From Clostridiales bacterium (GTDB lineage Bacteria > Bacillota_A > Clostridia > Saccharofermentanales > Saccharofermentanaceae): a stretch of 11,742 nt of DNA. Each line of letters opens with the position of its first letter. Positions within the stretch are counted from its first letter, which is position 1. The position numbers and the translations under genes are program-made. This document shows, piece by piece, positions 1-11,524 of this stretch. The notes beneath the pieces were generated by a model, which did no database searches, had not been told where the DNA came from, and was given only the letters and a program-made list of their open reading frames with translations. The stretch spans positions 1 to 11,742 of the forward strand of contig JAGCGE010000333.1 in the NCBI GenBank assembly GCA_017649745.1, written 5' to 3'.

Positions 1-3000
1 ACGGTTAGGTCTACACTTAACAAAATTATATCCCATGAGCAGATCCGAGTTAATGGTAAGTTCGAAAAGCCGTTCATGACTAAGGCCAACTGTATGCTCT
101 TTGTGGGTTCGAATGATCCCATCCAGTTAAGCCCGAATTCTGGTATGAAGCGTAGGCTTATTGATATTCGTCCAACCGGTAATTTGCTTTCCGCGGATAC
201 TTATGACGAATGTATGGAGCACATACCTTTCGAGAAGTCCGGTATTGCTTGGCGGTGTTATCAGACCTACAAGAAGTTAGGACGACACTATTATGACCAT
301 TATATTGCTGAAGACATGCTGGCAAGAACCTCACCTTTCCACAACTTCGTGGTCGAGAATGTCATGGAGCTTAAAGACGGAGTAAGTCTTGCAAGAGCCT
401 ATGACATGTATATCAAGTACGCTGAACTCTGTAAGTTTAAGAACGAACTTGTTAGATATAAATTTAGAGATACTCTTAAATTATATTTCGACAAGTATGA
501 AGATCAGAAGTTTAGCGGCTTCAGATGGGAAAAGATTGGAAAGAGTAAGCCTACAGAAATTTCACCGGTTCTGACATGGCTCTCATTCAATCAGTCACAT
601 TCGGATTTCGACCAGTTGTTCGAGTCTCAGCCTGCTCAGTACGCGAATAGGGACGGCTTGCCTGAGAGAAAGTGGGAGAACGTTACTACAAGACTTAGCG
701 ATCTCGATACTCACAGGTTGCATTATGTAAAGATGCCTGAGAATGTTATCTGTATCGATTTCGATATCAAGGATGATAATGGTAATAAGTCTTTGGAGCG
801 AAACATGGAAGCAGCATCGAAGTTCACACCAACCTATGCCGAACTTAGTAAGTCTGGCAGTGGCATTCATCTGCATTATATTTACACCGGCGGAGATCCA
901 AAAGATTTAAGTAGGGTTTTCGGAGATAATGTAGAGATTAAAGTATTCACTGGTAACTCATCTTTAAGAAGAAAACTTACACGTTGTAACGATCTTCCTA
1001 TAGCTCAGATGAGTTCCGGTTTACCAACTCGTGAAGTGAAAGGAGGAAACAAGTTGATAGATTGGGTGGGCTTTAAAACCGAGAAAGAACTTAGGAAACG
1101 AATTATCAATGCCATGCGTAATGCCGACAAGAATAATCCGGAAACCTATGGTAAGATTTATCCTAAGTTGGCACCTTTCCATAAACCTACAATAGACTTC
1201 ATCAATTCGCTTTTGGATGAGGCCTATGAATCAACATTATCCTATGATCTGAGAAACGATCTGGCACATACAATCCTGGCGTTCGCAATGGAGAGTCATA
1301 ACAAGTGCGATTATTGCGTATCCATTGTTAATGATATGAGGATGTGTTCCAAGGATATATTGGAGAAGGAAAAAGAAGATACTGTAGTTGATGAGAACGC
1401 TCCTATAGTTATATTTGATACCGAGGTGTCTCAGAGCTACAAACAGTATCTGGAGTATTGTAAGAAGAATAAGGTTCCGGTTAATCCAAAGATACCTGAA
1501 GATGCAAAAGCACACTTCCTGATTTGTTGGAAGTTCTTAGGTAAGGATAAAGAAGTCCAGAAGATGCTTGATCCTAAGCCTGAAGAAGTTGAGGCACTGT
1601 TTAAGTATGGTTTGATCGGTTTCAATAACCGTGACTACGATAACCATATGCTGTGGGCAGCCTCACAGGGTTATACAGCAGAAGAATTATATTCGCTTAA
1701 TAACCGTATCATAGCTGAGCATGATCCAAATGCTAAGTTTGGTCAGGCGTACAACATCTCTAAGACCGACATCTTAGACTTTGCATCAGCTGGAAACAAG
1801 AAGGGTCTTAAGAAGTGGGAGATTGAGCTTGGCGAAGACCATCTGGAATGGGATAGACCTTGGTATGAGCCTATACCGGATTCAAGGCTTCATGATTGGG
1901 TTACTTATTGTACGAATGACGTAGTAAGTACCGAACGGGTGTTTGAACATCTTCAGGAAGACTACGAAGCTAGAGAGATGCTTGCAAAGCTCGCTGGCGG
2001 CACCATGAACGATAAGACCAATTCTCTCACAATTAAACTTCTCACTCATGGTATAGATAATCCTCAGTCTCAGTACATCTATACCGATCTCAGTACTATC
2101 TTCCCGGGTTACGAATATCATCCCGAAGGCATTCCCAAAGAATTATATTCCACAGCACCAGGCACCAAGATCTCGAAATCCAGAAAGTCTATCTATATGG
2201 GTGAGGATCCGTCTGAAGGTGGTTTCGCTAACTGCCCTAAGCCTGGAGTATACTTCAATGTTTGGTTGTTTGACGTTGCTTCCATGCATCCGCATTCAGC
2301 TATCGCATTGAAGATCTTTGGCGATGTCATCACCAAGAGATACGAGAACCTAGTAGAAGCACGAGTTGCTATCAAACACATCAAAGAGATCGGAGACGCA
2401 GCATATCATGAAGCACTCAGGAGAATGGAAGCTATTAGAGAAGGTACTTCTAATATTATTGAGGGCATACTTAAAGGATTGTCTGGTGAGGCCCTCGAAA
2501 AGAAATGTAAAGCGATTGCTAATGCGCTTAAGACGGCTATCAATTCAGTATATGGATTGACAAGTGCCAAGTTTGATAATAAGTTGAGAGACCCGAGAAA
2601 CGTAGACAATATTGTTGCGAAGTATGGTGCTCTCTTCATGATCACTCTTAAGCACAAGTTGCAGGATATGGGTTGCACAGTTGTCCACATCAAGACGGAC
2701 TCAATCAAGATTGCTAACTGCAACGAAGAGATTGAGAAAGTTATTATGGACTTTGGTAAACAGTATGGATATACCTTCGAAAGAGAAGCGGTTTACTCAA
2801 AGATCTGTATTATTGATGACGCACAGTATATCGCTTACGAAGTCGAGAAGGATGGTAAGAGATTGGAGAAACCGTTCTGGACTGTAACAGGAGAAAAGTT
2901 TGCTCCTAACTACTTGTTCAAGAATCTCTTCTCACATGAGCCTGTTGAATTTAGCGACTATCCTGAGACTAAAGCCGTATCAGACGCAGCAATCTACATT

Positions 3001-3336
3001 GAGCGCGATGGATCTGAGAAGTTCATCGGAAGAGTCGGTTCGTTCGTGGCTGTAAAAGAAGGCCATGGCGGAAAGCTCTTACGTATCAATGGAGATAAGA
3101 GATCCGCAGTAACAGGAACAAAAGATTATATTTGGAACGAGGCCAATACCATCAAGGAACACCCTGAATGGCTTGACTACGACTATTATCGTTCCGAATG
3201 TGACAAAGCAGTTGACACTATTAATAAGTATTATCCGTTTGATCAGTTCGTCGAATGTGATCCGACGGATATTACTTTTGTACCGTACAACGAAGATGAA
3301 GTTGTACCATTTATGAATCCACCAGAAATTGCATAA
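1..3336 (+). CDS. Fused SF3 helicase (C-terminal end) - AEP primase - family B DNA polymerase, 5' partial
   Basis: The frame is open from the first base, so the true start lies upstream; 1111 codons are visible and are numbered here from nt 1. The order seen is as follows. The tail of an SF3 helicase has a sensor-1-like LFVGSND (nt 97-117) and an arginine-finger-like GMKRR (142-156), followed by a winged-helix-like stretch. An AEP primase has DFD (D253, D255; nt 757-765), SGSGIHLH (H290; 868) and VEIKVF (E312; 934). A family B polymerase has exonuclease motifs FDTE (D473, E475), GFNNRDYD (D547) and YCTND (Y636, D640). Its polymerase motifs are A, FDVASMHPHS (D758), B, K844 to NSVYG, and C, IKTDS (D900). 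It should unwind, prime and copy phage DNA with proofreading. Helicase Walker A and B would lie upstream of the window. Motifs A and B are only 86 residues apart, so the palm is compact. The polymerase is certain; the single-chain fusion is what the DNA shows, although separate products are possible (see the internal RBS). Confidence 0.87.
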   Translation, partial: TVRSTLNKIISHEQIRVNGKFEKPFMTKANCMLFVGSNDPIQLSPNSGMKRRLIDIRPTGNLLSADTYDECMEHIPFEKSGIAWRCYQTYKKLGRHYYDHYIAEDMLARTSPFHNFVVENVMELKDGVSLARAYDMYIKYAELCKFKNELVRYKFRDTLKLYFDKYEDQKFSGFRWEKIGKSKPTEISPVLTWLSFNQSHSDFDQLFESQPAQYANRDGLPERKWENVTTRLSDLDTHRLHYVKMPENVICIDFDIKDDNGNKSLERNMEAASKFTPTYAELSKSGSGIHLHYIYTGGDPKDLSRVFGDNVEIKVFTGNSSLRRKLTRCNDLPIAQMSSGLPTREVKGGNKLIDWVGFKTEKELRKRIINAMRNADKNNPETYGKIYPKLAPFHKPTIDFINSLLDEAYESTLSYDLRNDLAHTILAFAMESHNKCDYCVSIVNDMRMCSKDILEKEKEDTVVDENAPIVIFDTEVSQSYKQYLEYCKKNKVPVNPKIPEDAKAHFLICWKFLGKDKEVQKMLDPKPEEVEALFKYGLIGFNNRDYDNHMLWAASQGYTAEELYSLNNRIIAEHDPNAKFGQAYNISKTDILDFASAGNKKGLKKWEIELGEDHLEWDRPWYEPIPDSRLHDWVTYCTNDVVSTERVFEHLQEDYEAREMLAKLAGGTMNDKTNSLTIKLLTHGIDNPQSQYIYTDLSTIFPGYEYHPEGIPKELYSTAPGTKISKSRKSIYMGEDPSEGGFANCPKPGVYFNVWLFDVASMHPHSAIALKIFGDVITKRYENLVEARVAIKHIKEIGDAAYHEALRRMEAIREGTSNIIEGILKGLSGEALEKKCKAIANALKTAINSVYGLTSAKFDNKLRDPRNVDNIVAKYGALFMITLKHKLQDMGCTVVHIKTDSIKIANCNEEIEKVIMDFGKQYGYTFEREAVYSKICIIDDAQYIAYEVEKDGKRLEKPFWTVTGEKFAPNYLFKNLFSHEPVEFSDYPETKAVSDAAIYIERDGSEKFIGRVGSFVAVKEGHGGKLLRINGDKRSAVTGTKDYIWNEANTIKEHPEWLDYDYYRSECDKAVDTINKYYPFDQFVECDPTDITFVPYNEDEVVPFMNPPEIA
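1039..1056 (+). promoter_or_regulatory. Internal Shine-Dalgarno and in-frame TTG inside the replisome gene
   Basis: AAAGGAGG at 1039-1046 is followed after 7 bases by TTG at 1054, in the frame of the large gene. The surrounding GTGAAAGGAGGA resembles the real leaders of the SSB-like gene (GTGAAAGGAGAA) and the VRR-NUC gene (GTGAAAGGAGGA). It lies after the AEP motifs (last at nt 934) and before the first exonuclease motif (1417). It could therefore start a free family B polymerase of about 760 residues, or mark an old gene boundary. Codons for Lys-Gly-Gly can produce such a sequence by chance. Confidence 0.45.
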
Positions 3337-3355
3337 GTGAAAGGAGAACACTATT

Positions 3356-3889
3356 ATGAAGATCAGAATCGAGAGAGCAGCTAGAGCAGAGATGATGTTT
3401 GTTGAGGGAGCAGAGCAGAAAGATATTCTGCCCGGTTCTTTCAGAAACTTCAGAGGCGAGAAGAGAAGATACAACGACGAGGGTAAGAGGAACTTCAACC
3501 TCGCCCTCAACTTCCCTCAGGAAGAATTGGATAAGATCGCAGAGACAGGACTTCGCATAAAGGAACTTCCTGCAAGAGACGAGGAGTATGATGAGCCTCT
3601 GAGATTCGTTAAGGTTAATGTAGCGCTTGGAGGAAAGGTACCTCCGCAGTTGTTCTTGGTTAGCCCTAACGGTAAGCTGAAAGAACTGAACCAGAATGAG
3701 CTCGGGCTTCTTGATGGCGCAAGGTTCTCTAACGTAGATCTTGTCATCAGAACTTATCACCGTGACGAGAACACAACGTCATTATATTTGCAGAAGGGAT
3801 ACTTCACAATCGAGCAGGATCCAATCTCTGCTAAGTATGCTAACTACGATGAAGGTAACGATGAAGAGGATGAAATCCCTTTTGATTGA
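3356..3889 (+). CDS. Phage single-stranded DNA-binding-like protein
   Basis: A 177-residue acidic protein that probably coats single-stranded DNA at the phage fork. It resembles, from memory, a phage family with an N-terminal FRNF block (here GSFRNFRGEKRRYNDEG, residues 27-43) followed by a mixed beta region (to about 155) of OB-fold type. The tail is rich in Asp and Glu and ends in EEDEIPFD. That imitates the acidic DDDIPF-like tip through which bacterial SSBs recruit partner proteins. The gene starts 19 bases after the polymerase stop with an AAGGAG site 11 bases ahead, so it is probably co-transcribed with the replisome gene. All of its six or so glutamines use CAG, like the polymerase gene. 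The OB-fold is an inference; the acidic tip and the context are what can be seen. Confidence 0.7.
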   Translation: MKIRIERAARAEMMFVEGAEQKDILPGSFRNFRGEKRRYNDEGKRNFNLALNFPQEELDKIAETGLRIKELPARDEEYDEPLRFVKVNVALGGKVPPQLFLVSPNGKLKELNQNELGLLDGARFSNVDLVIRTYHRDENTTSLYLQKGYFTIEQDPISAKYANYDEGNDEEDEIPFD

Positions 3890-3898
3890 GGTTGACTT

Positions 3899-5116
3899 AT
3901 GAACACAGAGCTTTATCCGCATCAAATAGATGCTCTTAAAAAGATGCATAATGGCTGTGTACTATATGGAGGAGTTGGTTGTGGTAAAAGTAGAACCGCT
4001 TTAGCTTACACTTATATTTGTGAGTTAGGCGGTTCTCTTCGTATTAATGGTAAAGGTGTGTTTACAAAACCAGAAATAAAGAAGGATGTATACATTATCA
4101 CAACCGCAAAGAAAAGAGACACTATGGAATGGGAGGGAGAGGTTGCATACTTCTGTCTCCCATCTTCTATTAATGTTGTCGTTGACTCTTGGAATAATAT
4201 ACAAAAGTACAAGTCTGTGCATAGCGCAATGTTCATATTTGATGAGCAACGAGTTGTTGGTTCTGGCGCTTGGGTTAAAGCATTTCTAAAGATAGCAAGA
4301 CAAAACCATTGGATACTCCTGTCCGCAACACCTGGTGACCAATGGAAAGATTATATTCCGGTTATGGTGGCTAATGGCTTCTACAAAAACAAAACAGACT
4401 TCAATAATCAACATGTGGTTTATAAAGCTTATTTAAAGTTCCCAGCTATAGACCATTATGTAAATGTTAAGAAGTTGAAGTGGATAGCAAGTCAGATCCT
4501 AGTCAAGGTTGATTATGAACATGACATTATAAAACATAAGATTGACATTAAGTGTCACTATGATCAAAACCTATACCGGAAAGTAATGAAAGATCGGTGG
4601 GATCCGTTTGACAATTGTCCGATCGAGGAAACTGGGAAACTTTGCTATTTATTGCGGAAGGTTAGTAACTATGACAAGTCCAGATACACCGAGCTTGACA
4701 ATATACTAAAAACTTACAAGAAGAATAAGGTAATTATATTCTATAACTTCACGTATGAGTTAGTTGGTTTGAGAGAGTTCTTTGCCGAACGAGGTTACGA
4801 GATTGGGGAATGGAACGGCGAGGAACACACCGAGATACCCACTGGGGAAAAGTGGGCCTATCTATGTCAGTACACCGCAGCGTGTGAGGGATGGAACGCT
4901 ATTACCACTGACACCACAATATTCTTCTCACAAAACTACTCGTACAAAACACTTACCCAAGCTGAAGGCAGAATCGATAGACTTAATACTCCGTTCAAAG
5001 AATTATATTACTTTTACTTACGGAGTAACTCACCAATAGACCTGGCGATAAAAAGAGCATTACTACTGAAAAAGAATTTCAATGAGAAAATCTTTGTAAA
5101 GGGGGTTTCAGAATAA
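3899..5116 (+). CDS. SF2 (DEAD-like) DNA helicase / ATPase
   Basis: A 405-residue helicase of the compact SF2 type common in phages, expected to use ATP to move on or remodel DNA in replication or recombination. Visible motifs: YPHQ (6-9), Walker A GGVGCGKS (24-31, K30), Walker B FDEQ (114-117), motif III SAT (142-144) and motif VI QAEGRIDR (354-361, R358 and R361). IIFYNF (279-284) begins the second RecA-like domain. DEQR replaces the usual DEAH or DEAD, as in several phage relatives. The start is ATG, with GAGG from the preceding stop region 8 bases ahead. Its stop overlaps the next start (TAATG). Of 11 glutamines 9 are CAA, whereas the two upstream genes use only CAG. The exact substrate cannot be read from the sequence. 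Confidence 0.85.
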   Translation: MNTELYPHQIDALKKMHNGCVLYGGVGCGKSRTALAYTYICELGGSLRINGKGVFTKPEIKKDVYIITTAKKRDTMEWEGEVAYFCLPSSINVVVDSWNNIQKYKSVHSAMFIFDEQRVVGSGAWVKAFLKIARQNHWILLSATPGDQWKDYIPVMVANGFYKNKTDFNNQHVVYKAYLKFPAIDHYVNVKKLKWIASQILVKVDYEHDIIKHKIDIKCHYDQNLYRKVMKDRWDPFDNCPIEETGKLCYLLRKVSNYDKSRYTELDNILKTYKKNKVIIFYNFTYELVGLREFFAERGYEIGEWNGEEHTEIPTGEKWAYLCQYTAACEGWNAITTDTTIFFSQNYSYKTLTQAEGRIDRLNTPFKELYYFYLRSNSPIDLAIKRALLLKKNFNEKIFVKGVSE

Positions 5117-5451
5117 TGCTGGAGCAAATAAGGGATCATCAGAACTATTATGTGTCGGACGATGGGAGTGTCTACAGGAGGCGCAAGCAAGGCTTGTTTA
5201 AGTTAGCACCCGACTGGTCTAACAATTATGCAAGAGTTTGCTTGGACGGTAAAAACGAATCAATCGCAAGGTTGGTACTAAATACTTTTGACCCCATAGA
5301 CGATCCGACACTGATCGCTTTCCACATCGACGGTAATCATCACAACAACCATTTATCTAATCTGATCTGGATGACCGCATCGCAGGTTCAATTATATTCC
5401 GGTTACACTTTAGATTATCGTAAACAGGTTCTTACAAGAGGGCGCAGCTAA
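5116..5451 (+). CDS. HNH endonuclease (NUMOD4/HNH_3-like)
   Basis: A 111-residue protein with the two parts of small phage HNH nucleases. The N-terminal NUMOD4-like half reads YYVSDDGSVYRR (11-22), and the conserved IARLVLNTF is at 50-58. The zinc-less HNH core is FHIDGN..NN.L.NL.W (69-85), with H70, N78 and N82 as likely catalytic or metal residues. The position before H70 is Phe, where His, Asn or Asp is more usual. The protein probably nicks or cuts DNA, either as a free-standing homing enzyme or as part of the replication module. Translation is coupled to the helicase by a TAATG overlap, with AAAGGGGG about 10 bases ahead. The stop codon lies in the loop of the following terminator. The inserted-homing-gene idea is inference; no intron or intein is visible. 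Confidence 0.8.
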   Translation: MLEQIRDHQNYYVSDDGSVYRRRKQGLFKLAPDWSNNYARVCLDGKNESIARLVLNTFDPIDDPTLIAFHIDGNHHNNHLSNLIWMTASQVQLYSGYTLDYRKQVLTRGRS

Positions 5452-5472
5452 ATCGCGTCCTCTATTTTTTTT
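5437..5472 (+). terminator. Rho-independent terminator at the end of the HNH gene
   Basis: The arms AGAGGGCGC (5437-5445) and GCGTCCTCT (5455-5463) form a continuous 9-bp stem with one G-U pair and a 9-base loop. The stem is followed by A and eight T residues (5465-5472). The left arm is coding, and the HNH stop codon (5449-5451) sits in the loop, so the gene end and terminator are fused. It should end the replisome-SSB-helicase-HNH transcript. Confidence 0.88.
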
Positions 5473-5500
5473 AGACTTACCCCAGAGGTATCGTGGTAAA

Positions 5501-5550
5501 TACTATGACTATAGTAGAGAGGAAGGAAAAATCCACCTCTCTTGTCTTTT
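5501..5550 (+). promoter_or_regulatory. Two consecutive dyads upstream of the nuclease pair
   Basis: TACTAT (5501-5506) and ATAGTA (5511-5516) form a perfect 6-bp dyad around GACT. It is directly followed by AGAGAGG (5516-5522) and CCTCTCT (5536-5542), a 7-bp stem that can stack on an inner GGA/TCC pair, with TGTCTTTT after it. The first dyad is operator-like, and TATAGT (5510-5515) is a possible -10 without a convincing -35. The second may be a weak terminator or a leader hairpin. Because a strong terminator lies just upstream, some promoter for the downstream genes is expected here. Confidence 0.4.
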
Positions 5551-5568
5551 GTGAAAGGAGGACAAGCT

Positions 5569-5856
5569 ATGCTTGAAAGGGATTACCAAAAGAAATTGGT
5601 AAAAAAGCTGAAAGAAAAATTCCCGGGTTGTTACGTAATCAAAAACGACGCACAACTAAAACAAGGGATACCAGACTTGCTTGTATTATATTCCAACAAG
5701 TGGGTCGCACTGGAAGTCAAACAATCAGCAACCGCACATCACCAACCGAATCAGGATCACAACGTGGAGCGTATGAACGACATGTCATATGCTACTTTTA
5801 TTTATCCTGAAAACGAAGCCCAGGTCTTCAAGGAGTTAGAGGAGGTGTTTAGATGA
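5569..5856 (+). CDS. VRR-NUC domain nuclease
   Basis: A 95-residue stand-alone VRR-NUC protein of the PD-(D/E)XK fold, a class tied to cleavage of branched or Holliday-junction-like DNA. Visible residues: E3 in the first helix, GIPDLLVL (33-40, D36), ALEVK (47-51, E49 and K51) and a Gln-rich HHQPNQ stretch (57-62) where the family has its conserved Q. The chosen start is ATG 5569, with AAAGGAGG ending 6 bases ahead. An in-frame TTG at 5542 would add nine residues but precedes the ribosome-binding site and lies in the hairpin, so I reject it. The last codons overlap the next start as ATGA, so the two nucleases are translationally coupled. Confidence 0.82.
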   Translation: MLERDYQKKLVKKLKEKFPGCYVIKNDAQLKQGIPDLLVLYSNKWVALEVKQSATAHHQPNQDHNVERMNDMSYATFIYPENEAQVFKELEEVFR

Positions 5857-6497
5857 GCTTCACGTTCTTTGATCATAGCAGAGATATTCCTGCAGGATCA
5901 CACGCACTCTTAAGCGCTTCTAAATACTTCTGGACAAATTACGACAACGATAAGTTATACAACTACATCAGTTCGTCATATGCCCAAGAGATTGGAACAA
6001 TACTTCATGACCTGGCCGCAACAGCTATTAAATACAAAGTGAAGATCCCTAAACTCGCAGCTAGACCAATTATATTGCTTTGGCTGTTATCACATGGGAT
6101 ACCACGAGGAGTCATTGACGTTAGTAAGTACATCGACAACTTCTGTGCTTATGTCAACGACGCAATCGGCTTTGATATGACAGCTGAGCAACCACTTAAA
6201 TACTCAGGTAATGCATTCGGTACTGCAGACGCTATTCGTTTCAACGATAAGAAGATGCACCTCCGAATACACGACTTTAAATCCGGCGTAACTCAACCTT
6301 GCCTCAGGCAGTTAGAGATCTACGCCGCTTTATTTTGCCTCGAGTACAAAGTGAAGCCTAAGGACATAACTATTGAACTTAGGATTTATTGGCAGAACGA
6401 AGTCATAGTTGGTAATCCGACTGCAGCTGACATTCTACCACTTATGGACAAAATTATATCTTTTGACAAATTCATTAACACCGTAAAGGGGGATTAA
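5853..6497 (+). CDS. RecB/Cas4-family PD-(D/E)XK nuclease
   Basis: A 214-residue single-domain nuclease of the RecB/Cas4 (PDDEXK_1) type. In family order it shows EIGTILHDLA with H52, GTADAIRF with D126, HDFKSG with D141 and K143, and the family's Q-x3-Y motif as QLEIYAAL (Q153, Y157). All metal and catalytic positions are therefore present. The four-cysteine iron-sulfur cluster of many Cas4 and AddB proteins is not evident. Phage relatives are usually exonucleases working in recombination or DNA breakdown. It is coupled to the VRR-NUC gene by ATGA and ends four bases before the next gene, whose AAAGGGGG site is inside this coding region. A joint DNA-processing role with the SF2 helicase and VRR-NUC is inferred from order only. 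Confidence 0.82.
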   Translation: MSFTFFDHSRDIPAGSHALLSASKYFWTNYDNDKLYNYISSSYAQEIGTILHDLAATAIKYKVKIPKLAARPIILLWLLSHGIPRGVIDVSKYIDNFCAYVNDAIGFDMTAEQPLKYSGNAFGTADAIRFNDKKMHLRIHDFKSGVTQPCLRQLEIYAALFCLEYKVKPKDITIELRIYWQNEVIVGNPTAADILPLMDKIISFDKFINTVKGD

Positions 6498-6500
6498 GCC

Positions 6501-9500
6501 ATGGAAGATTATTTAATGCACTCAGGTAAAGCACATGACGAGAATCCTCCTGGACGAGGATCTGGTCGATACCCGTTTGGTTCGGGTAAGCGTAAGCATC
6601 AGCACGCATGGGATCTTAAGTCAAGGATTGACAAAATGAGAGCCGAGGGCAAAGAGCCTAAGGAAATTGCTAAAGAACTTGGCTGGACTATGGATCAGTA
6701 TAACAAGGAATCTCAGAAGTTTGAGAAGGTTGGAAATACATCCAGGTATAAAGCCGAGTTGGAAATAGCGAACCACGAGATCGCATTAGATAAGCATGAA
6801 GAGCTTTTATGGTATAGGTCACACAATGACCCTAAAACCGGAGAGCCATACACGACAACTGAGATTGCGAGACAGATGGGATTCAAGAATGAATCAACAC
6901 TTAGATCATTCGAGAAGTCTACAAAAAACTCTGAGGAATCTCCTGTATTCGTAGCCGCCAACAAGATTATGGAAGAGGCTAGTAAGACTGGCTACTTAGA
7001 TGTTGGTAAAGGCTCAGCATTATATTTGGACATTACAGAAGACCGAATGAAGACCGCTTTGCTCGTAGCAGAGAAAGAAGGCTTCAAGATCGCTAATGAT
7101 GTTCATGTAAAGCAGCTGAATGACTCGGACAACTTTACAACTCGTAAGATCTTAGTTTCTCCAGATGAGTTAAAAGCTAACCCTGACCTTAGTCCTATGC
7201 AGCTTGCTTATAAGGCAATTAAGGCCAATAACGTCGAGAGGTTCTATGACGAACAAGACACTAGGCTTGACGCTCAAAAAGATCCTACAATGCAGCATAT
7301 CGACCCAGTTAGAATAGACCCTTCAAGGATCAAAGTTCGTTATGCTGAACAAGGTGGAACCGCTAAAGATGGTATGATCGAAATCGCAGCCGACATTGAC
7401 AAAAATGGAAACATAGTACCACGAAACGCCGATCTTTCACTTGGCCTTCGTGCTGATGGAGAGTTCGCTCGTTACGCTCAGGTTCGTATCGCTGTTGATG
7501 GTGGTAAAGAACTTGCAGGTAAAGAGAATCCTACAGGTGGTATGTACATTAAAGGAATGGCTGTGTACAATGTCGATCTGCCAAAAGGAACCGACATCTT
7601 AGTTAACTCTAACAAGAGTGAAACTAAAGGATTGGCTAAAGCACTTAAACCAATGGAAGAAGCAAAAGACAATCCATTTGGAGCTTCTACGATACAAAGA
7701 TGGTACGAAGACCCTAAGACTGGGGAAAAGAAACTTAGTGCCGTTCAAATCGTAGGTGCTACAACCATGGACGACCATGACGCTCATGTTGAGGGAAGAT
7801 GGGCAGAATGGAGTAAGAATCTTCCTGCACAGTTCTTATCTAAACAGAACTTAGGCTTGGTTAAGCAGCAGCTCAAGGTTGATGTAATGAAGAACGAAGA
7901 TGAATTCGAAACCATTATGTCAATTAGCCAGCCAGTAGTTAAGAGGCAGCTCCTTATAGATTTTGCTGAATCTTGTGATAAAGCAGCAGAAGAACTTAAA
8001 GGTGCTCCGTTACCTGGACAGAAGACACACGTTCTCTTGGGCTCAGAGACACTCAAGGATAATGAATGCTTCTGTGCAAACTACGACACAGGAACAACTG
8101 TTGCTCTTGTACGATTCCCTCACGAAAGTCCATCTCAGATCCCTGTTCTTAAAGTTAATAATAGAAACAAAGAAGTCAAGGATATGGTAGGTAAAACACC
8201 TCTTGACGCTGTTGCTATTAATAAACATGTGGCGGATCAGATGTCGGGTGCAGACTTTGATGGAGATAACGTTCTGGTATTACCTATGTCAAGAAAGAAC
8301 GCTGATGGCAGCTTCGATAAGGCTTACAATATTAAAGCTCAGAAGATGCTTGATGACCTTAAAGGATTCGACACTGAGGAATACGGACTTAACAATCCTC
8401 GATACGCCCACATGGCTAAGAAGGATAAGGATGGCAACTTAACAGACGAGCCTACTTACTATTACCCTAAGACCGAGAAAGCAAAAGGAACGGAAATGGG
8501 TAAGGCTTCAAACCTCATTACAGATATGTACGCTAAAGGATGTGACGATCCTCATGAAATAGCAAGAGCGATCAAATATTCTATGACAGTTATCGACTCT
8601 AAGAAGCATAAACTCAACTACAAAGCAGCTTATGTGGATCTAGGGATCGATGAACTTAAGCGTAAATACCAGACTCAGCCTGACGGAAAGGTTGGAGGCG
8701 CTAGTACGCTGATCTCTAAATCTTCTTCTCCTGTCAATGTTAAGAGGATGGAATGGGATTATGGTAAGATCGACCCTAATACTGGTGAGAAGATCATGAG
8801 AACTCCTCAGCAGACTACCAAGATGAAGCGTAAACCTGTCTATGCTGAAGCTCCTGAAGGATACACTTACGAAGACGCAGCTGGTAAAACACATAAGTCT
8901 AAGTATTTCAAGGATAAGAACGGCAAGAACGTAGTCGCTACATACACAGGTAAGGTTGTAAAGAACAAAGATGGTTCTTACTCCTACGAACCTGGTAAAG
9001 GTAGGCAGCAATGGGTCGATGATAAGGAAGTTGACAGGACTATGGAAGTAAGCCGTATGTCCAGGGCCAAGGATGCATATGAACTGCTTTCTAAGAACCC
9101 TTCTAAGATCGAGGTTACTTACGCAGACTACGCTAACCATATGAAATCTATGGCTAACAACGCCCGTAAGGCAGCAGTCATGATCGATACTTCTTATCCA
9201 GTAGATCCGAAGATGAAGAAAGAATACGCTAACGAGATAGCATCTCTCGAAAAGAAGCTTATTAATTCTAAGAAGAACGCAGTTAGAGAAAGACAGGCTC
9301 AGACTCTGGCTACTTCAAGAGTTAATGCTGAGATTGATGCTAATCCCGGGATGTATGATGATGCATCTTCAAGGAAGAAGTTACGTGACCGCGCACAGAA
9401 GCAGGCTCGTTATGATTGCAATGCCCATAGAGATATGGTTACATTCACACCTTCAGAATGGGAAGCAATCGAGAAGAAAGCAGTATCAGCAACTAAGTTA

Positions 9501-9692
9501 AGGGAGCTCATGGCCCATGCAGATCAGGCTGACTACACAAGGATGGCACTTCCTCGTAGTAATAGTATCTCTTCAGCAAAGAAGTCAAGGATTCGTACTC
9601 TTGCAGCACAGGGATACACACAGGAAGAGATCGCAAAGATGGTCGATGGAGTTTCCACATCATCAGTAAGTAGCATACTTACAGGAGATTAA
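6501..9692 (+). CDS. Single-chain DFDGD RNA polymerase-like protein with helix-turn-helix ends
   Basis: A 1063-residue protein with SGADFDGDNVLVLP around 582-595 (D585, D587, D589). DFDGD is the magnesium-binding loop of the beta-prime double-psi barrel in cellular RNA polymerases, QDE-1, YonO of SPbeta and crAss-like phage enzymes. A Lys-rich QFLSKQNLGLVKQQL block (K448, K455) lies ahead and may belong to the partner barrel. By this reading it is a one-chain phage RNA polymerase. The N-terminus carries HSGKAHD...GRYPFGSG (7-29). HTH-like segments are KEIAKELGWTMDQY (54-67), TTTEIARQMGFKNESTL (118-134) and, at the C-terminus, GYTQEEIAKMVDG with a second helix (about 1039-1061). Residues about 930-1010 look helical and charged. 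The start has AAAGGGGG 8 bases ahead. Polymerase activity is not proven; a related two-barrel fold with another role is the alternative. Confidence 0.7.
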   Translation: MEDYLMHSGKAHDENPPGRGSGRYPFGSGKRKHQHAWDLKSRIDKMRAEGKEPKEIAKELGWTMDQYNKESQKFEKVGNTSRYKAELEIANHEIALDKHEELLWYRSHNDPKTGEPYTTTEIARQMGFKNESTLRSFEKSTKNSEESPVFVAANKIMEEASKTGYLDVGKGSALYLDITEDRMKTALLVAEKEGFKIANDVHVKQLNDSDNFTTRKILVSPDELKANPDLSPMQLAYKAIKANNVERFYDEQDTRLDAQKDPTMQHIDPVRIDPSRIKVRYAEQGGTAKDGMIEIAADIDKNGNIVPRNADLSLGLRADGEFARYAQVRIAVDGGKELAGKENPTGGMYIKGMAVYNVDLPKGTDILVNSNKSETKGLAKALKPMEEAKDNPFGASTIQRWYEDPKTGEKKLSAVQIVGATTMDDHDAHVEGRWAEWSKNLPAQFLSKQNLGLVKQQLKVDVMKNEDEFETIMSISQPVVKRQLLIDFAESCDKAAEELKGAPLPGQKTHVLLGSETLKDNECFCANYDTGTTVALVRFPHESPSQIPVLKVNNRNKEVKDMVGKTPLDAVAINKHVADQMSGADFDGDNVLVLPMSRKNADGSFDKAYNIKAQKMLDDLKGFDTEEYGLNNPRYAHMAKKDKDGNLTDEPTYYYPKTEKAKGTEMGKASNLITDMYAKGCDDPHEIARAIKYSMTVIDSKKHKLNYKAAYVDLGIDELKRKYQTQPDGKVGGASTLISKSSSPVNVKRMEWDYGKIDPNTGEKIMRTPQQTTKMKRKPVYAEAPEGYTYEDAAGKTHKSKYFKDKNGKNVVATYTGKVVKNKDGSYSYEPGKGRQQWVDDKEVDRTMEVSRMSRAKDAYELLSKNPSKIEVTYADYANHMKSMANNARKAAVMIDTSYPVDPKMKKEYANEIASLEKKLINSKKNAVRERQAQTLATSRVNAEIDANPGMYDDASSRKKLRDRAQKQARYDCNAHRDMVTFTPSEWEAIEKKAVSATKLRELMAHADQADYTRMALPRSNSISSAKKSRIRTLAAQGYTQEEIAKMVDGVSTSSVSSILTGD

Positions 9693-9702
9693 AGGAGATA
9701 TT

Positions 9703-11034
9703 ATGGCGTTATTTGTTTGCCCAAAGAAATACTTATCGGATGAGGTTGTCCCAGTTCCCGATCCGGAACCGACACCAACTCCTACACCAGATCCTGAACC
9801 CGAACCAGATATACCTACACCTGACCCGGAACCTAATCCCGATCCTGGTGCAGTGTATACTCAAGGATTCAGAGATCTTACAGTAATACCTGACTTATGG
9901 AACACTGGATGTGACGAGAGTAAGCTTGAGTACACCATAGGTACCGAGAATGTTGCTGATATGTATACACTTTTCGGTATCGATATGCGTGAGGATGGCC
10001 AGATCAGGTTCGCTAAAGCTAAAAACTTGGAACTGCCTACAGAAGTAGTAGTAGAGAATGTAAGGTTTACACTTAAACCTAACTACATTGCTGTTACAGC
10101 ATACAGTGAGTTGCATACTTTCATATTCAAGAATTGTAAGTTTGATGCAGGCTTCGCTACCGGATCAAAGACACCTGGCGCTACAAACATGGTGTTCACT
10201 AAGTTCTATGACTGTACATTCCCGAACTTCAGTGGTGTAGATGCTGAACTCCATAACTGTTTCATTGGTAACGGCGATCACCTTGATGGCTTAAGGATCG
10301 ACTACAACGTTAGCGTATACGACTGCTATGTAGCAAACCTGCTGCCAAGAGAGTCTAACACCTCTGGCGCACACGTTGACGGATGTCAGATCTATAACGC
10401 TAAACTGTCTGGTAACCAGGTTATTGATGGTAAGGACAGGTATGAAGCAGGTGACATTCACTTCTACAATACCCGTATCGAGATGCCTGACATTAACTAC
10501 CCTGTTAAGGGCGGTGGTGTAACAGGATGTCTCTATACCGAGAACCAGTCTGACTTCTTAGGTACATTTGAGGTACATGACTGTATCGTAAACGGTGGAT
10601 CCTACTGCCTCTACATCGGTAATTCTTCTTATGAATTGAACGGTGTGATGGAGAACGTATGGATAGGAGACGGACGGAGGTACGGTATGTTCTATCCTGT
10701 TCAGAACGACATCAGCAACATTACAAAAACTGATTGTATTGCAACGCCAACACTTTACGTTTCATCTGTTAAGAAAGAGAACGGAGAGATCCGGGCCCTT
10801 GTTACAAATGATACGAAGGTGGAGAGAACTCTTATGGTTCGTACAGATAGTGGCGATCGCACCTATACAATCCGTAAGTTCGATAACTTCGAGGACACTA
10901 CAGATTTCAAGGATATGTGGGACTACCCTATAGATATAGAGGTATCCATCCCTGAGGACAGCAGTTTCGTTGTCTTCTTCGATAACACGAACGGGGATAT
11001 GGCCCAGATCAGATATGTCCAGTTTGAGGGTTAA
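9703..11034 (+). CDS. Right-handed beta-helix protein with Pro-rich linker, probable tail spike
   Basis: 443 residues. A short N-terminus (MALFVCPKKYL) leads into a linker of repeated DPEP/PTP units (about 17-48). From about 100 to 345, short beta strands recur with the pattern h-x-(N/D)-C-x-h: FKNCKF (C145), FYDCTF (C171), LHNCFI (C186), VYDCYV (C208), VDGCQI (C228), VTGCLY (C276), VHDCIV (C294) and TDCIA (C345). This is a ladder typical of right-handed beta-helices (pectate-lyase-like, tail spikes). Residues about 350-443 read as a beta-sandwich-like end domain. It likely binds or cuts a surface glycan on the virion; no lyase or hydrolase active site is evident. It starts 10 bases after the preceding stop with AAAGGAG at 9692-9698. 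No signal peptide or membrane anchor is seen. A secreted adhesin is possible but less likely in this context. Confidence 0.65.
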   Translation: MALFVCPKKYLSDEVVPVPDPEPTPTPTPDPEPEPDIPTPDPEPNPDPGAVYTQGFRDLTVIPDLWNTGCDESKLEYTIGTENVADMYTLFGIDMREDGQIRFAKAKNLELPTEVVVENVRFTLKPNYIAVTAYSELHTFIFKNCKFDAGFATGSKTPGATNMVFTKFYDCTFPNFSGVDAELHNCFIGNGDHLDGLRIDYNVSVYDCYVANLLPRESNTSGAHVDGCQIYNAKLSGNQVIDGKDRYEAGDIHFYNTRIEMPDINYPVKGGGVTGCLYTENQSDFLGTFEVHDCIVNGGSYCLYIGNSSYELNGVMENVWIGDGRRYGMFYPVQNDISNITKTDCIATPTLYVSSVKKENGEIRALVTNDTKVERTLMVRTDSGDRTYTIRKFDNFEDTTDFKDMWDYPIDIEVSIPEDSSFVVFFDNTNGDMAQIRYVQFEG

Positions 11035-11041
11035 TTGTATA

Positions 11042-11182
11042 CCCTAATTCAAGGATTTGTAGCTAGTAAAAAGAATAGGTTTACCCTAGGTTTTGAAAAA
11101 ATATTTTAAAATAAAATCTAAGGTAAACCTATAGTTTTAGTACAGTATTTTAGGCGTTTTTATAGGCCCTAATTCAAGGATT
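11042..11182 (+). repeat. 16-base direct repeat CCCTAATTCAAGGATT
   Basis: Identical copies lie at 11042-11057 and 11167-11182, 125 bases apart, both in the gap between the beta-helix gene and the 92-residue gene and both preceded by a TATA-containing stretch. The second copy starts inside the left arm of the 11156-11210 hairpin and mostly occupies its loop. They could be binding sites for a regulator or RNA polymerase, or the edges of an old rearrangement. Confidence 0.8.
11075..11138 (+). terminator. Large AT-rich hairpin after the beta-helix gene, probable bidirectional terminator
   Basis: The arms 11075-11094 (ATAGGTTTACCCTAGGTTTT) and 11113-11132 (AAAATCTAAGGTAAACCTAT) pair over 20 positions with one C-A mismatch and one G-U. 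The 18-base loop is A/T-rich. On the plus strand TTTT follows two bases after the stem; on the minus strand TCTTTTT follows directly. It therefore could end transcription from either side. A leader RNA structure is the alternative. Confidence 0.6.
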
Positions 11183-11218
11183 GTTGACCAAATATAGGGT
11201 CTATAGAAACCTGCTTTT
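11156..11218 (+). promoter_or_regulatory. Leader hairpin upstream of the 92-residue gene
   Basis: GTTTTTATAGGCCCT (11156-11170) and AGGGTCTATAGAAAC (11196-11210) form a 15-bp stem with two G-U pairs and a 25-base loop. The loop carries most of the second direct repeat plus TTGACC. TTTT follows five bases later, and the ribosome-binding site AGGAGG (11233-11238) is just downstream. This may be an attenuator, a translation control element or an operator. No convincing -35/-10 pair could be assigned. Confidence 0.5.
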
Positions 11219-11245
11219 ATACAAGTACTTTCAGGAGGCTTCTGA

Positions 11246-11524
11246 ATGTCGACACAGAAACGAAAGAACATGTGGTTGACTACAATTGACAACCCTTTTA
11301 ACCCATTTACACAGTTCGATGACTGGTACGACTGGGACCTTAAGATGGGTTACGATACTTGTGGTCGAATCGCAAAGCTTGCGCCGACTTCTGATGAAAA
11401 CTTAACTGAATTCGAGAATGAAGAATTGATTAATGAAGCAATTAATTTGATTTTAGATCAGTTCGATGACGAAGTTTACAAGTTAGTGTTCGAGGAAGAA
11501 GTTTCACAAGCAGAAAAAGAATAA
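11246..11524 (+). CDS. Small acidic conserved phage protein of unknown function
   Basis: 92 residues with a strong start: AGGAGG ends 7 bases before the ATG. The N-terminal half is aromatic and compact (MWLTTIDNPFNPFTQFDDW at residues 9-27, then WDLKMGYDTCGRIAKLA). The C-terminal half is an acidic helix with many Glu and Asp. From memory, similar WLTT.DNP..PFTQ..DWY..D...GY proteins are frequent in phages of gut Gram-positive bacteria and have no assigned role. No catalytic motif, zinc site or membrane segment is visible. It is set apart from the preceding gene by two large hairpins and a direct repeat, so it is probably transcribed separately or under special control. The function is not known to me. 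Confidence 0.75.
   Translation: MSTQKRKNMWLTTIDNPFNPFTQFDDWYDWDLKMGYDTCGRIAKLAPTSDENLTEFENEELINEAINLILDQFDDEVYKLVFEEEVSQAEKE

What the first reader, a model, noticed from the sequence alone, without database searches (positions are those of the whole stretch)
25..7027. A strand-specific ATTATAT word scattered through the early genes
Sixteen plus-strand copies in 7 kb (14 of them ATTATATT) compare with roughly one expected from base composition, with none on the minus strand and none in the last 4.7 kb. They lie in all three codon phases and in seven different genes, so the encoded residues (LY, YI, II) do not explain them. Several spacings are near 384 bases (4350-4733, 5002-5391, 5685-6069, 6069-6453). 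A DNA or RNA signal is likely: priming sites for the AEP primase, a loading site on one strand, an RNA-processing or anti-termination site, or a start site for the phage RNA polymerase.
Basis: seen in the sequence. Interest (0 to 1): 0.72.

Follow-up and report, generated by a model that had tools for sequence, protein, structure and literature searches.

The report
Stage-specific address words in phage genes
A family of bacterial viruses carries short DNA words, nearly always on the gene-reading strand and with a different word in different gene regions, kept by selection in a spaced-out scatter, which looks like an unknown signal read while or after these genes are transcribed.

Summary
In detail: 16 sense ATTATAT, 0 antisense; codon-preserving shuffles average 3.9, maximum 10 of 300. 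A second sense-only word, TCAAGGAT (11:0), takes over across the RNA-polymerase gene. The pattern recurs in relatives. Core ATATT is the most enriched of 1024 5-mers in the early zone of 11 of 18 related phages of Firmicutes and Actinobacteria, and upstream of the polymerase gene in 22 of 47 further, partly overlapping loci. Nearest relatives show three zones: ATATT early, TCAAGGA middle, TCAAAAT late. Synonymous codons inside ATATT words are conserved (534 of 732 identical, 354.7 expected; 12 ordered pairs). In three genomes words exclude each other: 0 of 450 neighbour gaps under 50 nt, 68.5 expected. Three unrelated phages of the same host genera lack the enrichment. There is no 384-base period. 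Priming sites are unlikely: a characterised homologous replicase prefers CCAAC. Best reading: class-specific signals read on the non-template strand or nascent RNA.

The parts
25..31 (+). early word ATTATAT
299..305 (+). early word ATTATAT(T)
480..486 (+). early word ATTATAT(T)
875..881 (+). early word ATTATAT(T)
1409..1415 (+). early word variant TTATATT
1686..1692 (+). early word ATTATAT(T)
2142..2148 (+). early word ATTATAT(T)
3125..3131 (+). early word ATTATAT(T)
3781..3787 (+). early word ATTATAT(T)
4012..4018 (+). early word variant TTATATT
4350..4356 (+). early word ATTATAT(T)
4733..4739 (+). early word ATTATAT(T)
5002..5008 (+). early word ATTATAT(T)
5391..5397 (+). early word ATTATAT(T)
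5685..5691 (+). early word ATTATAT(T)
6069..6075 (+). early word ATTATAT(T)
6453..6459 (+). early word ATTATAT
7019..7025 (+). last early word ATTATAT(T), inside the RNA polymerase gene
767..773 (+). middle word TCAAGGA(T)
3152..3158 (+). middle word TCAAGGA
5828..5834 (+). middle word TCAAGGA
6621..6627 (+). middle word TCAAGGA(T)
7323..7329 (+). middle word TCAAGGA(T)
8053..8059 (+). middle word TCAAGGA(T)
8176..8182 (+). middle word TCAAGGA(T)
8908..8914 (+). middle word TCAAGGA(T)
9369..9375 (+). middle word TCAAGGA
9585..9591 (+). middle word TCAAGGA(T)
9861..9867 (+). middle word TCAAGGA(T)
10907..10913 (+). middle word TCAAGGA(T)
11049..11055 (+). middle word TCAAGGA(T), intergenic
11174..11180 (+). 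middle word TCAAGGA(T), intergenic
1..3336 (+). helicase / AEP primase / family-B DNA polymerase fusion, 5' end cut by the window (phrog_4210; domain reading from motifs and from homologue GP55)
3356..3889 (+). ssDNA-binding / single-strand annealing protein
3899..5116 (+). helicase
5116..5451 (+). HNH endonuclease
   Evidence: (just under Pfam's cut-off)
5542..5856 (+). endonuclease (phrog_93); a family that the window shares with Gravy gene 90, annotated VRR-Nuc
5853..6497 (+). exonuclease (phrog_3953); a family that the window shares with Gravy gene 91, annotated Cas4 family
6501..9692 (+). single-chain RNA polymerase with GADFDGD motif; the early-to-middle word switch falls on this gene

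Best explanation
The words are selected, orientation-specific nucleic-acid signals that mark the transcription units of successive gene regions in this phage family. SHOWN: the early region carries ATATT-type words on the sense strand (ATTATATT in the window); in the near relatives the region around the RNA-polymerase gene carries TCAAGGA(T); the structural-gene region of several members carries TCAAAAT(G). The early words sit in all codon phases and in non-coding gaps, their synonymous codons are conserved, in the three cleanest genomes neighbours are never closer than 53 nt, and they recur on average every 215-465 nt without regard to gene boundaries. INFERRED: a factor that travels with the transcribing polymerase, or binds the emerging transcript, recognises the class-specific word on the non-template strand or RNA and acts locally (pausing, anti-termination or processing) about once per few hundred nt. 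INFERRED: the switch of words follows a switch of transcription machinery. TATAAT promoter-like elements precede early genes in five relatives; the enzyme YonO transcribes late genes in SPbeta. The early/middle/late labels rest on gene content and position; I had no expression data.
For: Codon-preserving shuffles. ATATT is rank 1 of 1024 5-mers in the early zone of 11 of 18 genomes, pooled 1301 vs 892, S 27.8; the next word not overlapping it is ACAAC, S 7.0. Rank 1 in 22 of 47 further loci upstream of the RNA polymerase. Three-zone profile: in 8 near relatives TCAAGGA 87 sense (about 34 expected), 1 antisense, from -12.5 to +5 kb of the RNAP start, and TCAAAAT 48 sense (about 30 expected), 8 antisense, from +5 to +30 kb; in 7 actinobacteriophages TCAAAAT 41 sense (about 26 expected), 0 antisense, from +5 to +27.5 kb. 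Synonymous conservation: ATATT 534 of 732 vs 354.7 over 12 ordered pairs that are not independent; TCAAGGA in four pairs 10/13 vs 6.6, 17/22 vs 12.1, 6/9 vs 2.8, 17/29 vs 13.3. Exclusion: 0 gaps under 50 nt vs 68.5 for 453 sites; 20 control AT-rich 5-mers median ratio 0.94, and the four lowest overlap the word. Not per gene: genes without a site are not significantly fewer than after circular shifts in any of 13 genomes. Unrelated phages of the same host genera, phiC31, GTE2, Mushu, at expectation on the coding strand (2/3.4, 8/7.8, 9/9.0). In SPbeta a different word, TACATA, is enriched on the sense strand of both + and - genes (80/51, 36/18), not antisense (19/20.8, 15/12.4), in all phases, so there a word follows transcription direction. 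Repeated TATAAT promoter-like elements before early genes. YonO transcribes late genes (PMC5467207).
Against: No reader protein was found; no gene family matches presence or absence of the word. Transcript reading is not proven in this family because I found no reliable minus-strand genes in the early zones. Antisense ATATT is also depleted, which an RNA reader would not require: 4 vs 21.2 in a post-hoc set of 5 late zones, but only 27 vs 47.3, rank 30 of 1024, in a set of 10. Word sites are not more accessible in predicted RNA folds (0.616 vs 0.604, p 0.53). ATATT is not confined to the early zone everywhere: it is also enriched in the late zone of TieDye (35/15.7), Kardashian (21/7.2), BitterVaud1 (44/29.7) and Camille (16/8.1) among 17 late zones. 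Mudcat and 1706 lack the early enrichment, P078 (z 2.7) and CapnMurica (z 4.1, rank 3) are weak. Mutual exclusion is weaker outside the three cleanest genomes: ratio 0.35 at 0-25 nt and 0.79 at 25-50 nt in six gut-type genomes, 0.03 and 0.68 in seven others. TCAAGGA is at expectation outside the near group, and TCAAAAT taken singly is clear only in oengus (z 7.1), 2.5-3.2 in Shepard, Scap1 and D_HF4_2, lower elsewhere. MT835485 has TGATATTT 31:2 although no related RNA polymerase was found in it. The host NusG motif TTNTTT is not enriched (290 vs 316). TCAAGGA and ATATT are uneven over codon phases (49/14/15; 613/283/398).
Confidence: 0.4

Rival explanations
1. RNA-level class tags: a phage-encoded RNA-binding protein or sequence-specific ribonuclease recognises AUAUU in early mRNAs, and other factors recognise UCAAGGA and UCAAAAU in later ones, controlling stability or translation. 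It works like T4 RegB, which processes early mRNAs (RegB from recall).
For: Sense-only and tied to gene regions, independent of codon phase and gene boundaries. SPbeta word follows the sense strand in both orientations.
Against: No accessibility signal. Antisense depletion (partly post hoc). A cleavage site would not obviously need spacing of at least 53 nt. Three different readers would be needed.
Confidence: 0.28
2. Stoperator-like silencing: a repressor binds the words on dsDNA and stops host RNA polymerase in one orientation, as in cluster A mycobacteriophages.
For: Dispersed asymmetric sites oriented with transcription, as described for L5 stoperators (PMC9283540). Antisense depletion fits a dsDNA reader. 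oengus carries an integrase.
Against: 5-8 bp rather than 13 bp, mostly inside genes and up to about 150 sites in an early zone against more than twenty in L5; a different word per region is unexplained.
Confidence: 0.12
3. DNA-strand polarity signal for replication, recombination or packaging (primase site, Chi, KOPS or nickase type).
For: Strand-specific, codon-phase independent, spaced along the DNA rather than per gene. The helicase-primase-polymerase and HNH genes are in the same module. Four genomes carry ATATT in the late zone too.
Against: Different words in early, middle and late zones on the same strand in the near relatives; ATATT is at expectation in the late zone of Gravy and Untouchable. 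Homologous primase prefers CCAAC. SPbeta word flips with gene orientation.
Confidence: 0.14
4. Codon, codon-pair or mutational bias without function.
For: ATATT and TCAAGGA are uneven over codon phases. T7 shows that strong 7-mer excess can come from codon pairs: CG[CT]TAAG 36 vs 10.6, all 36 in one phase.
Against: All phases and non-coding gaps used, synonymous conservation, mutual exclusion, same-host-genus controls.
Confidence: 0.04

Closest known systems
Stoperators of cluster A mycobacteriophages (L5, TipsytheTRex)
   Same: Dispersed asymmetric sites oriented with transcription across a phage genome (PMC9283540, passages).
   Different: 13-bp sites, more than twenty, in promoters and short intergenic spaces, read by one repressor; here 5-8 bp, mostly inside genes, up to about 150 per early zone, a different word per region.
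ops element / RfaH and NusG-dependent pause motif TTNTTT
   Same: Short sequence read on the non-template strand during elongation (PMC12288461, passages; RfaH papers seen as listing only).
   Different: ops acts for distal genes of long operons; TTNTTT is not enriched here. No phage NusG-like reader was identified.
Primase recognition sites of phage replicases (GP55 of 1706; NrS-1 PrimPol)
   Same: The window encodes a homologue of GP55; short strand-specific template motif.
   Different: GP55 strong site is CCAAC, not ATATT, with loose specificity (PMC12205980). Zoned words do not fit a genome-wide priming need.
T4 RegB sites in early mRNAs
   Same: Short motif tied to an early transcript class (RegB from recall; papers seen as listing only).
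   Different: RegB acts mainly near ribosome-binding sites (recall); here words are spread through genes with mutual exclusion.
Chi and KOPS (recalled)
   Same: Short, strand-oriented, dispersed, codon-phase independent.
   Different: Genome-wide polarity from ends or origin; no switch of word between gene regions.

Membership tests
Stoperator system | Asymmetric dispersed sites oriented with transcription | tested here: met
   (orientation relative to genes that nearly all run one way)
Stoperator system | Long (about 13 bp) conserved site, in promoters and intergenic gaps | tested here: not met
   No further strongly conserved flank positions in 765 sites; the window's 16 ATTATAT are all in ORFs
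Stoperator system | Bound by an immunity repressor that stops elongation | not testable with these tools
   needs binding and reporter assays
NusG-dependent pause sites | TTNTTT in the non-template strand | tested here: not met
   290 vs 316 expected in 10 genomes
Primase (PrimPol/GP55) priming sites | Word equals the known strong priming site of the family's replicase | tested here: not met
   CCAAC in GP55; 1706 itself lacks ATATT enrichment
Promoter of the phage RNA polymerase | Extended conserved promoter around the word | tested here: not met
   No strong second conserved element within -60..+65 of 765 words
Host-derived composition or codon effect | Also present in unrelated phages of the same host genera | tested here: not met
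   phiC31, GTE2, Mushu at expectation on the coding strand (the Streptomyces host of phiC31 is recalled); other strand of Mushu 16/11.3
Replication-strand signal (Chi/KOPS type) | Same word along the whole replicated strand | tested here: inconclusive
   Words differ by zone in near relatives, but TieDye, Kardashian, BitterVaud1 and Camille carry ATATT in the late zone too
Transcript-sense signal | Orientation follows the gene when genes are inverted | tested here: inconclusive
   No reliable minus genes in early zones; a different word in SPbeta does follow

The most novel reading that the evidence does not exclude
A sequence-based licence for transcription elongation. Each class of transcribing complex must meet its own word, in the right orientation, once every few hundred nucleotides to continue, so that phage genes of the right class are read while host DNA, antisense strands and other classes are not. 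This would be a sequence-coded counterpart of the way T4 Alc spares modified phage DNA (recalled). It would explain sense-biased words, antisense depletion, spacing of at least 53 nt, independence from gene boundaries, and a change of word near the polymerase gene.
Probability: 0.15. Interest if true: 0.95.

Novelty: categorically new. Interest (0 to 1): 0.84.

Why it matters
If right, phage genes carry a second, nucleic-acid-level code: short words that differ by gene region, superimposed on coding sequence and conserved at synonymous sites in phages of two bacterial phyla. It would expose an unknown reader protein, give a sequence rule for gene class in phages with single-chain RNA polymerases, and be testable at once with RNA-seq or elongation mapping in cultured members such as Gordonia phage Gravy. 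I found no description of such words in 10 full-text searches of the open PMC library (aimed at it directly); most subscription papers and preprints were not covered.

Tried and rejected
384-base periodicity: rejected, pair distances show only short-range exclusion. Per-gene tag (every gene needs one site): not supported by circular shifts. RNA accessibility: no difference. Promoter element: no second conserved element. NusG TTNTTT: not enriched. Primase site: CCAAC in the homologue; raw CCAAC strand counts show no matching pattern. Host effect: three controls of the same host genera negative. Minus-strand gene test inside the family: failed, since 91 of 98 minus ORFs called lacked a Shine-Dalgarno-like sequence or were under 180 bases and are probably spurious. 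Sense-antisense exclusion: not informative, 0.51 and 0.61 at 25-75 nt in one group on 6 and 8 pairs, 1.29 and 1.02 in the other. Late word as one conserved word across all members: not supported; TCAAGGA is enriched only in the near group, and TCAAAAT is at expectation in 1706 and P078. The reverse-strand column printed is faulty and was ignored. The minimum-gap test against codon shuffles was set aside because the shuffles keep many original sites; Poisson, jitter and control 5-mers were used instead. Of 80 loci (a capped list), 47 were scored (chosen for upstream sequence; one, L138, has only 580 bases upstream; L120 has the length of phage Mudcat, already used; L145 and L147 gave the same counts and look like near duplicates; L101, L103, L106, L107 are parts of the genomes G002-G005). 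Genes were called by a simple longest-ORF rule in the scripts, not from annotation.


Full report
OBSERVATION. The window holds 16 ATTATAT on the + strand and none on the - strand, 14 of them ATTATATT. Dinucleotide shuffles give a mean of 2.93, maximum 8 of 200. Shuffling synonymous codons within genes, keeping the protein, codon usage and the following base, gives a mean of 3.9, maximum 10 of 300, so coding does not explain the excess. The copies fall in three phases (4/4/8) and seven ORFs. The absence from the last 4.7 kb cannot be judged from the window alone, because the shuffle expects 0.24 there.

A SECOND WORD. A k-mer count of the window shows a second sense-only word: TCAAGGAT, 11 on +, 0 on - (codon-shuffle mean 3.2, maximum 6). 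Ten of the 11 lie at 6621-11181, in and after the gene at 6501-9692. That gene encodes a single-chain RNA polymerase: PHROG 4291, invariant GADFDGD in 13 aligned relatives, and a predicted model (mean pLDDT 81.9) whose best PDB matches are plant RDR2 polymerases (E 2.1e-4, probability 1.00, but TM-score only about 0.21). Relating it to YonO rests on recall, not on a direct alignment. The remaining genes form a replication module: a helicase/AEP/PolB fusion whose homologue in phage 1706, GP55, has been characterised, an ssDNA-binding protein, helicase, HNH, endonuclease and exonuclease.

FAMILY-WIDE EARLY WORD. The closest relative found, G001 (RNA polymerase 72% identical), shows the same two words in the same order: ATTATAT 40:2, the last at 22.2 kb, and TCAAGGAT 14:0 from 13 kb on, densest around the polymerase. 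Faecalibacterium phage oengus has TGATATTT 28:0 in its early region and TCAAAATG 17:1 in its late region. I then scored every 5-mer against codon-preserving shuffles in 18 family genomes. ATATT is rank 1 of 1024 in the early zone of 11 of 18 (pooled 1301 vs 892, S 27.8; the next word not overlapping it has S 7.0); Shepard and Scap1 rank 2, CapnMurica 3, the window 6, P078 14, Mudcat 728, 1706 1020. Curtobacterium phage Pippin15 is also positive. In 47 further loci around the polymerase gene (not all independent: they include parts of G002-G005, Mudcat and a near-duplicate pair) ATATT is rank 1 upstream in 22 and rank 2 in 4. Unrelated phages of the same host genera are at expectation on the coding strand: phiC31 2/3.4, GTE2 8/7.8, Mushu 9/9.0. 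Enterococcus phage phiSHEF2, T7, the first 19 kb of lambda, and SPbeta do not show it. So the signal belongs to the phage lineage, not to the host.

THREE ZONES. In the nearest relatives (G002-G005) the map has three parts: ATATT/TATATT upstream, TCAAGGA around the DNA and RNA polymerase genes (sparse in G005), and TCAAAAT over the structural side. Aligned on the RNA-polymerase start, 8 near relatives give TCAAGGA 87 sense (about 34 expected) and 1 antisense from -12.5 to +5 kb, and TCAAAAT 48 sense (about 30 expected) and 8 antisense from +5 to +30 kb; in 7 actinobacteriophages TCAAAAT is 41 sense (about 26 expected) and 0 antisense from +5 to +27.5 kb. In the near and actinobacterial groups the ATATT excess falls off at or just after the start of the polymerase gene. 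Limits: in 4 of 17 late zones (TieDye, Kardashian, BitterVaud1, Camille) ATATT is enriched as well, TCAAGGA is at expectation outside the near group, and TCAAAAT taken singly is clear only in oengus and at expectation in 1706 and P078. I call the zones early, middle and late from gene content only; the early label is supported by repeated TATAAT promoter-like elements before early genes in Gravy, Untouchable, ReqiPoco6, P078 and D_HF4_2 and by YonO transcribing late genes in SPbeta (PMC5467207).

SELECTION ON THE WORDS. Codons that overlap ATATT and encode a conserved residue keep the same codon more often than the same codons elsewhere: pooled 534 of 732, 354.7 expected, over 12 ordered genome pairs, which are not independent; window to G001 26 of 31 vs 16.7, Gravy to Untouchable 81 of 101 vs 49.1. 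For TCAAGGA four pairs give 10/13 vs 6.6, 17/22 vs 12.1, 6/9 vs 2.8 and 17/29 vs 13.3. The words also avoid each other. In Gravy, Untouchable and ReqiPoco6 no neighbour gap is under 50 nt (0 vs 68.5 by Poisson for 453 sites; smallest gaps 56, 53 and 57), while 20 control AT-rich 5-mers have a median ratio of 0.94 and the four lowest overlap the word. The exclusion is weaker elsewhere: 0.03 and 0.68 at 0-25 and 25-50 nt in seven other genomes, 0.35 and 0.79 in six gut-type genomes, against 0.84 and 0.86 in six negative genomes. Scanning all 5-mers for avoidance near ATATT returns the word and its overlaps, and also ATATC (3 vs 21.4), so the recognised core is probably ATAT followed by T or C. 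Gaps show no longer period and are not arranged per gene. The T7 genome gives a useful contrast: its enriched CG[CT]TAAG (36 vs 10.6) is in one codon phase in all 36 cases, a codon-pair effect.

WHAT READS THEM. Three facts argue for something tied to transcription: the words are on the sense strand, the word changes between gene regions in the near relatives, and in SPbeta, which has genes in both directions, a different word (TACATA) is enriched on the sense strand of both + and - genes (80/51 and 36/18) but not on their antisense strand. SPbeta lacks the mutual exclusion (8 gaps under 50 nt vs 4.8 expected in its + block), so it is a parallel, not a member. Within the family the test by inverted genes could not be done, since I found no reliable minus-strand genes in the early zones. 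Depletion of antisense ATATT hints at reading of DNA rather than RNA, but it is strong only in a post-hoc set (4 vs 21.2) and moderate in a wider one (27 vs 47.3). No RNA-fold context was seen. I favour a factor that reads the non-template strand or nascent RNA during elongation, with an RNA tag or RNase next. No gene family matches the presence of the word.

KNOWN SYSTEMS. Stoperators share dispersed, transcription-oriented asymmetric sites but are 13 bp, more than twenty in number, found in promoters and intergenic gaps, and read by one repressor (PMC9283540). The NusG pause motif TTNTTT (PMC12288461) is not enriched. The primase of the homologous replicase prefers CCAAC, with loose specificity (PMC12205980). 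RegB, Chi, KOPS and T4 Alc were compared from recall. For papers: PMC12205980, PMC5467207, PMC9283540, PMC12288461 and PMC10986025 (an unrelated Rhodococcus phage, not used) were seen as passages found by search terms; the others only as search listings. Ten full-text searches turned up no description of such words; those aimed at it directly were.

VERDICT. That the early words are selected nucleic-acid signals is well supported (I would put it near 0.85). How they act is open (0.40 for the elongation or nascent-transcript reading).

Noticed in passing
window 11034-11246: Intergenic stretch with the repeated block CCCTAATTCAAGGATT (11042 and 11167) and a further ACCCTA; possible promoter or terminator of the unit after the polymerase gene.
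   Followed up: partly
Gravy 28800-37648, Untouchable 31820-39284, ReqiPoco6 41445-50299, P078 23014-39568, D_HF4_2 16874-19768: Repeated early-promoter-like element around CCTATAATGA (in Gordonia and Rhodococcus phages followed by GACCCCTAYGAAAGGA) before many small early genes, alike in phages of Gordonia, Rhodococcus and Lactococcus and in a phage contig from saliva.
   Followed up: partly
SPBc2 (NC_001884), whole genome: Sense-strand TACATA enriched in genes of both orientations, all codon phases; the motif contains UACAU, which from recall is the cleavage site of a B. subtilis MazF-type toxin.
   Followed up: partly
T7 genome: CG[CT]TAAG 36 vs 10.6 expected, all in one codon phase: a codon-pair preference.
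   Followed up: yes
Gravy and Untouchable: The palindrome GGATCC is strongly over-represented in Gravy (both zones) and GGGATCC in Untouchable.
   Followed up: no
BitterVaud1: GATCG is strongly depleted in both zones (6/29.3 and 10/33.7), as could arise under restriction or methylation pressure.
   Followed up: no
oengus 6089-10641; Gravy 34031-40066: DUF6353 proteins (Pfam hits on three tested members), a family found in 19 of 22 genomes compared, 39 members in all, function unknown.
   Followed up: no
window 11246-11524: Small acidic protein (phrog_4303) after the polymerase gene; the family of the small protein downstream of the polymerase in Gravy (59127-59375) is in 14 of 22 genomes, the window included.
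   Followed up: no
MT835485: 70-kb faecal phage scaffold with the homologous DNA polymerase and TGATATTT 31:2 but no detectable relative of the RNA polymerase.
   Followed up: partly
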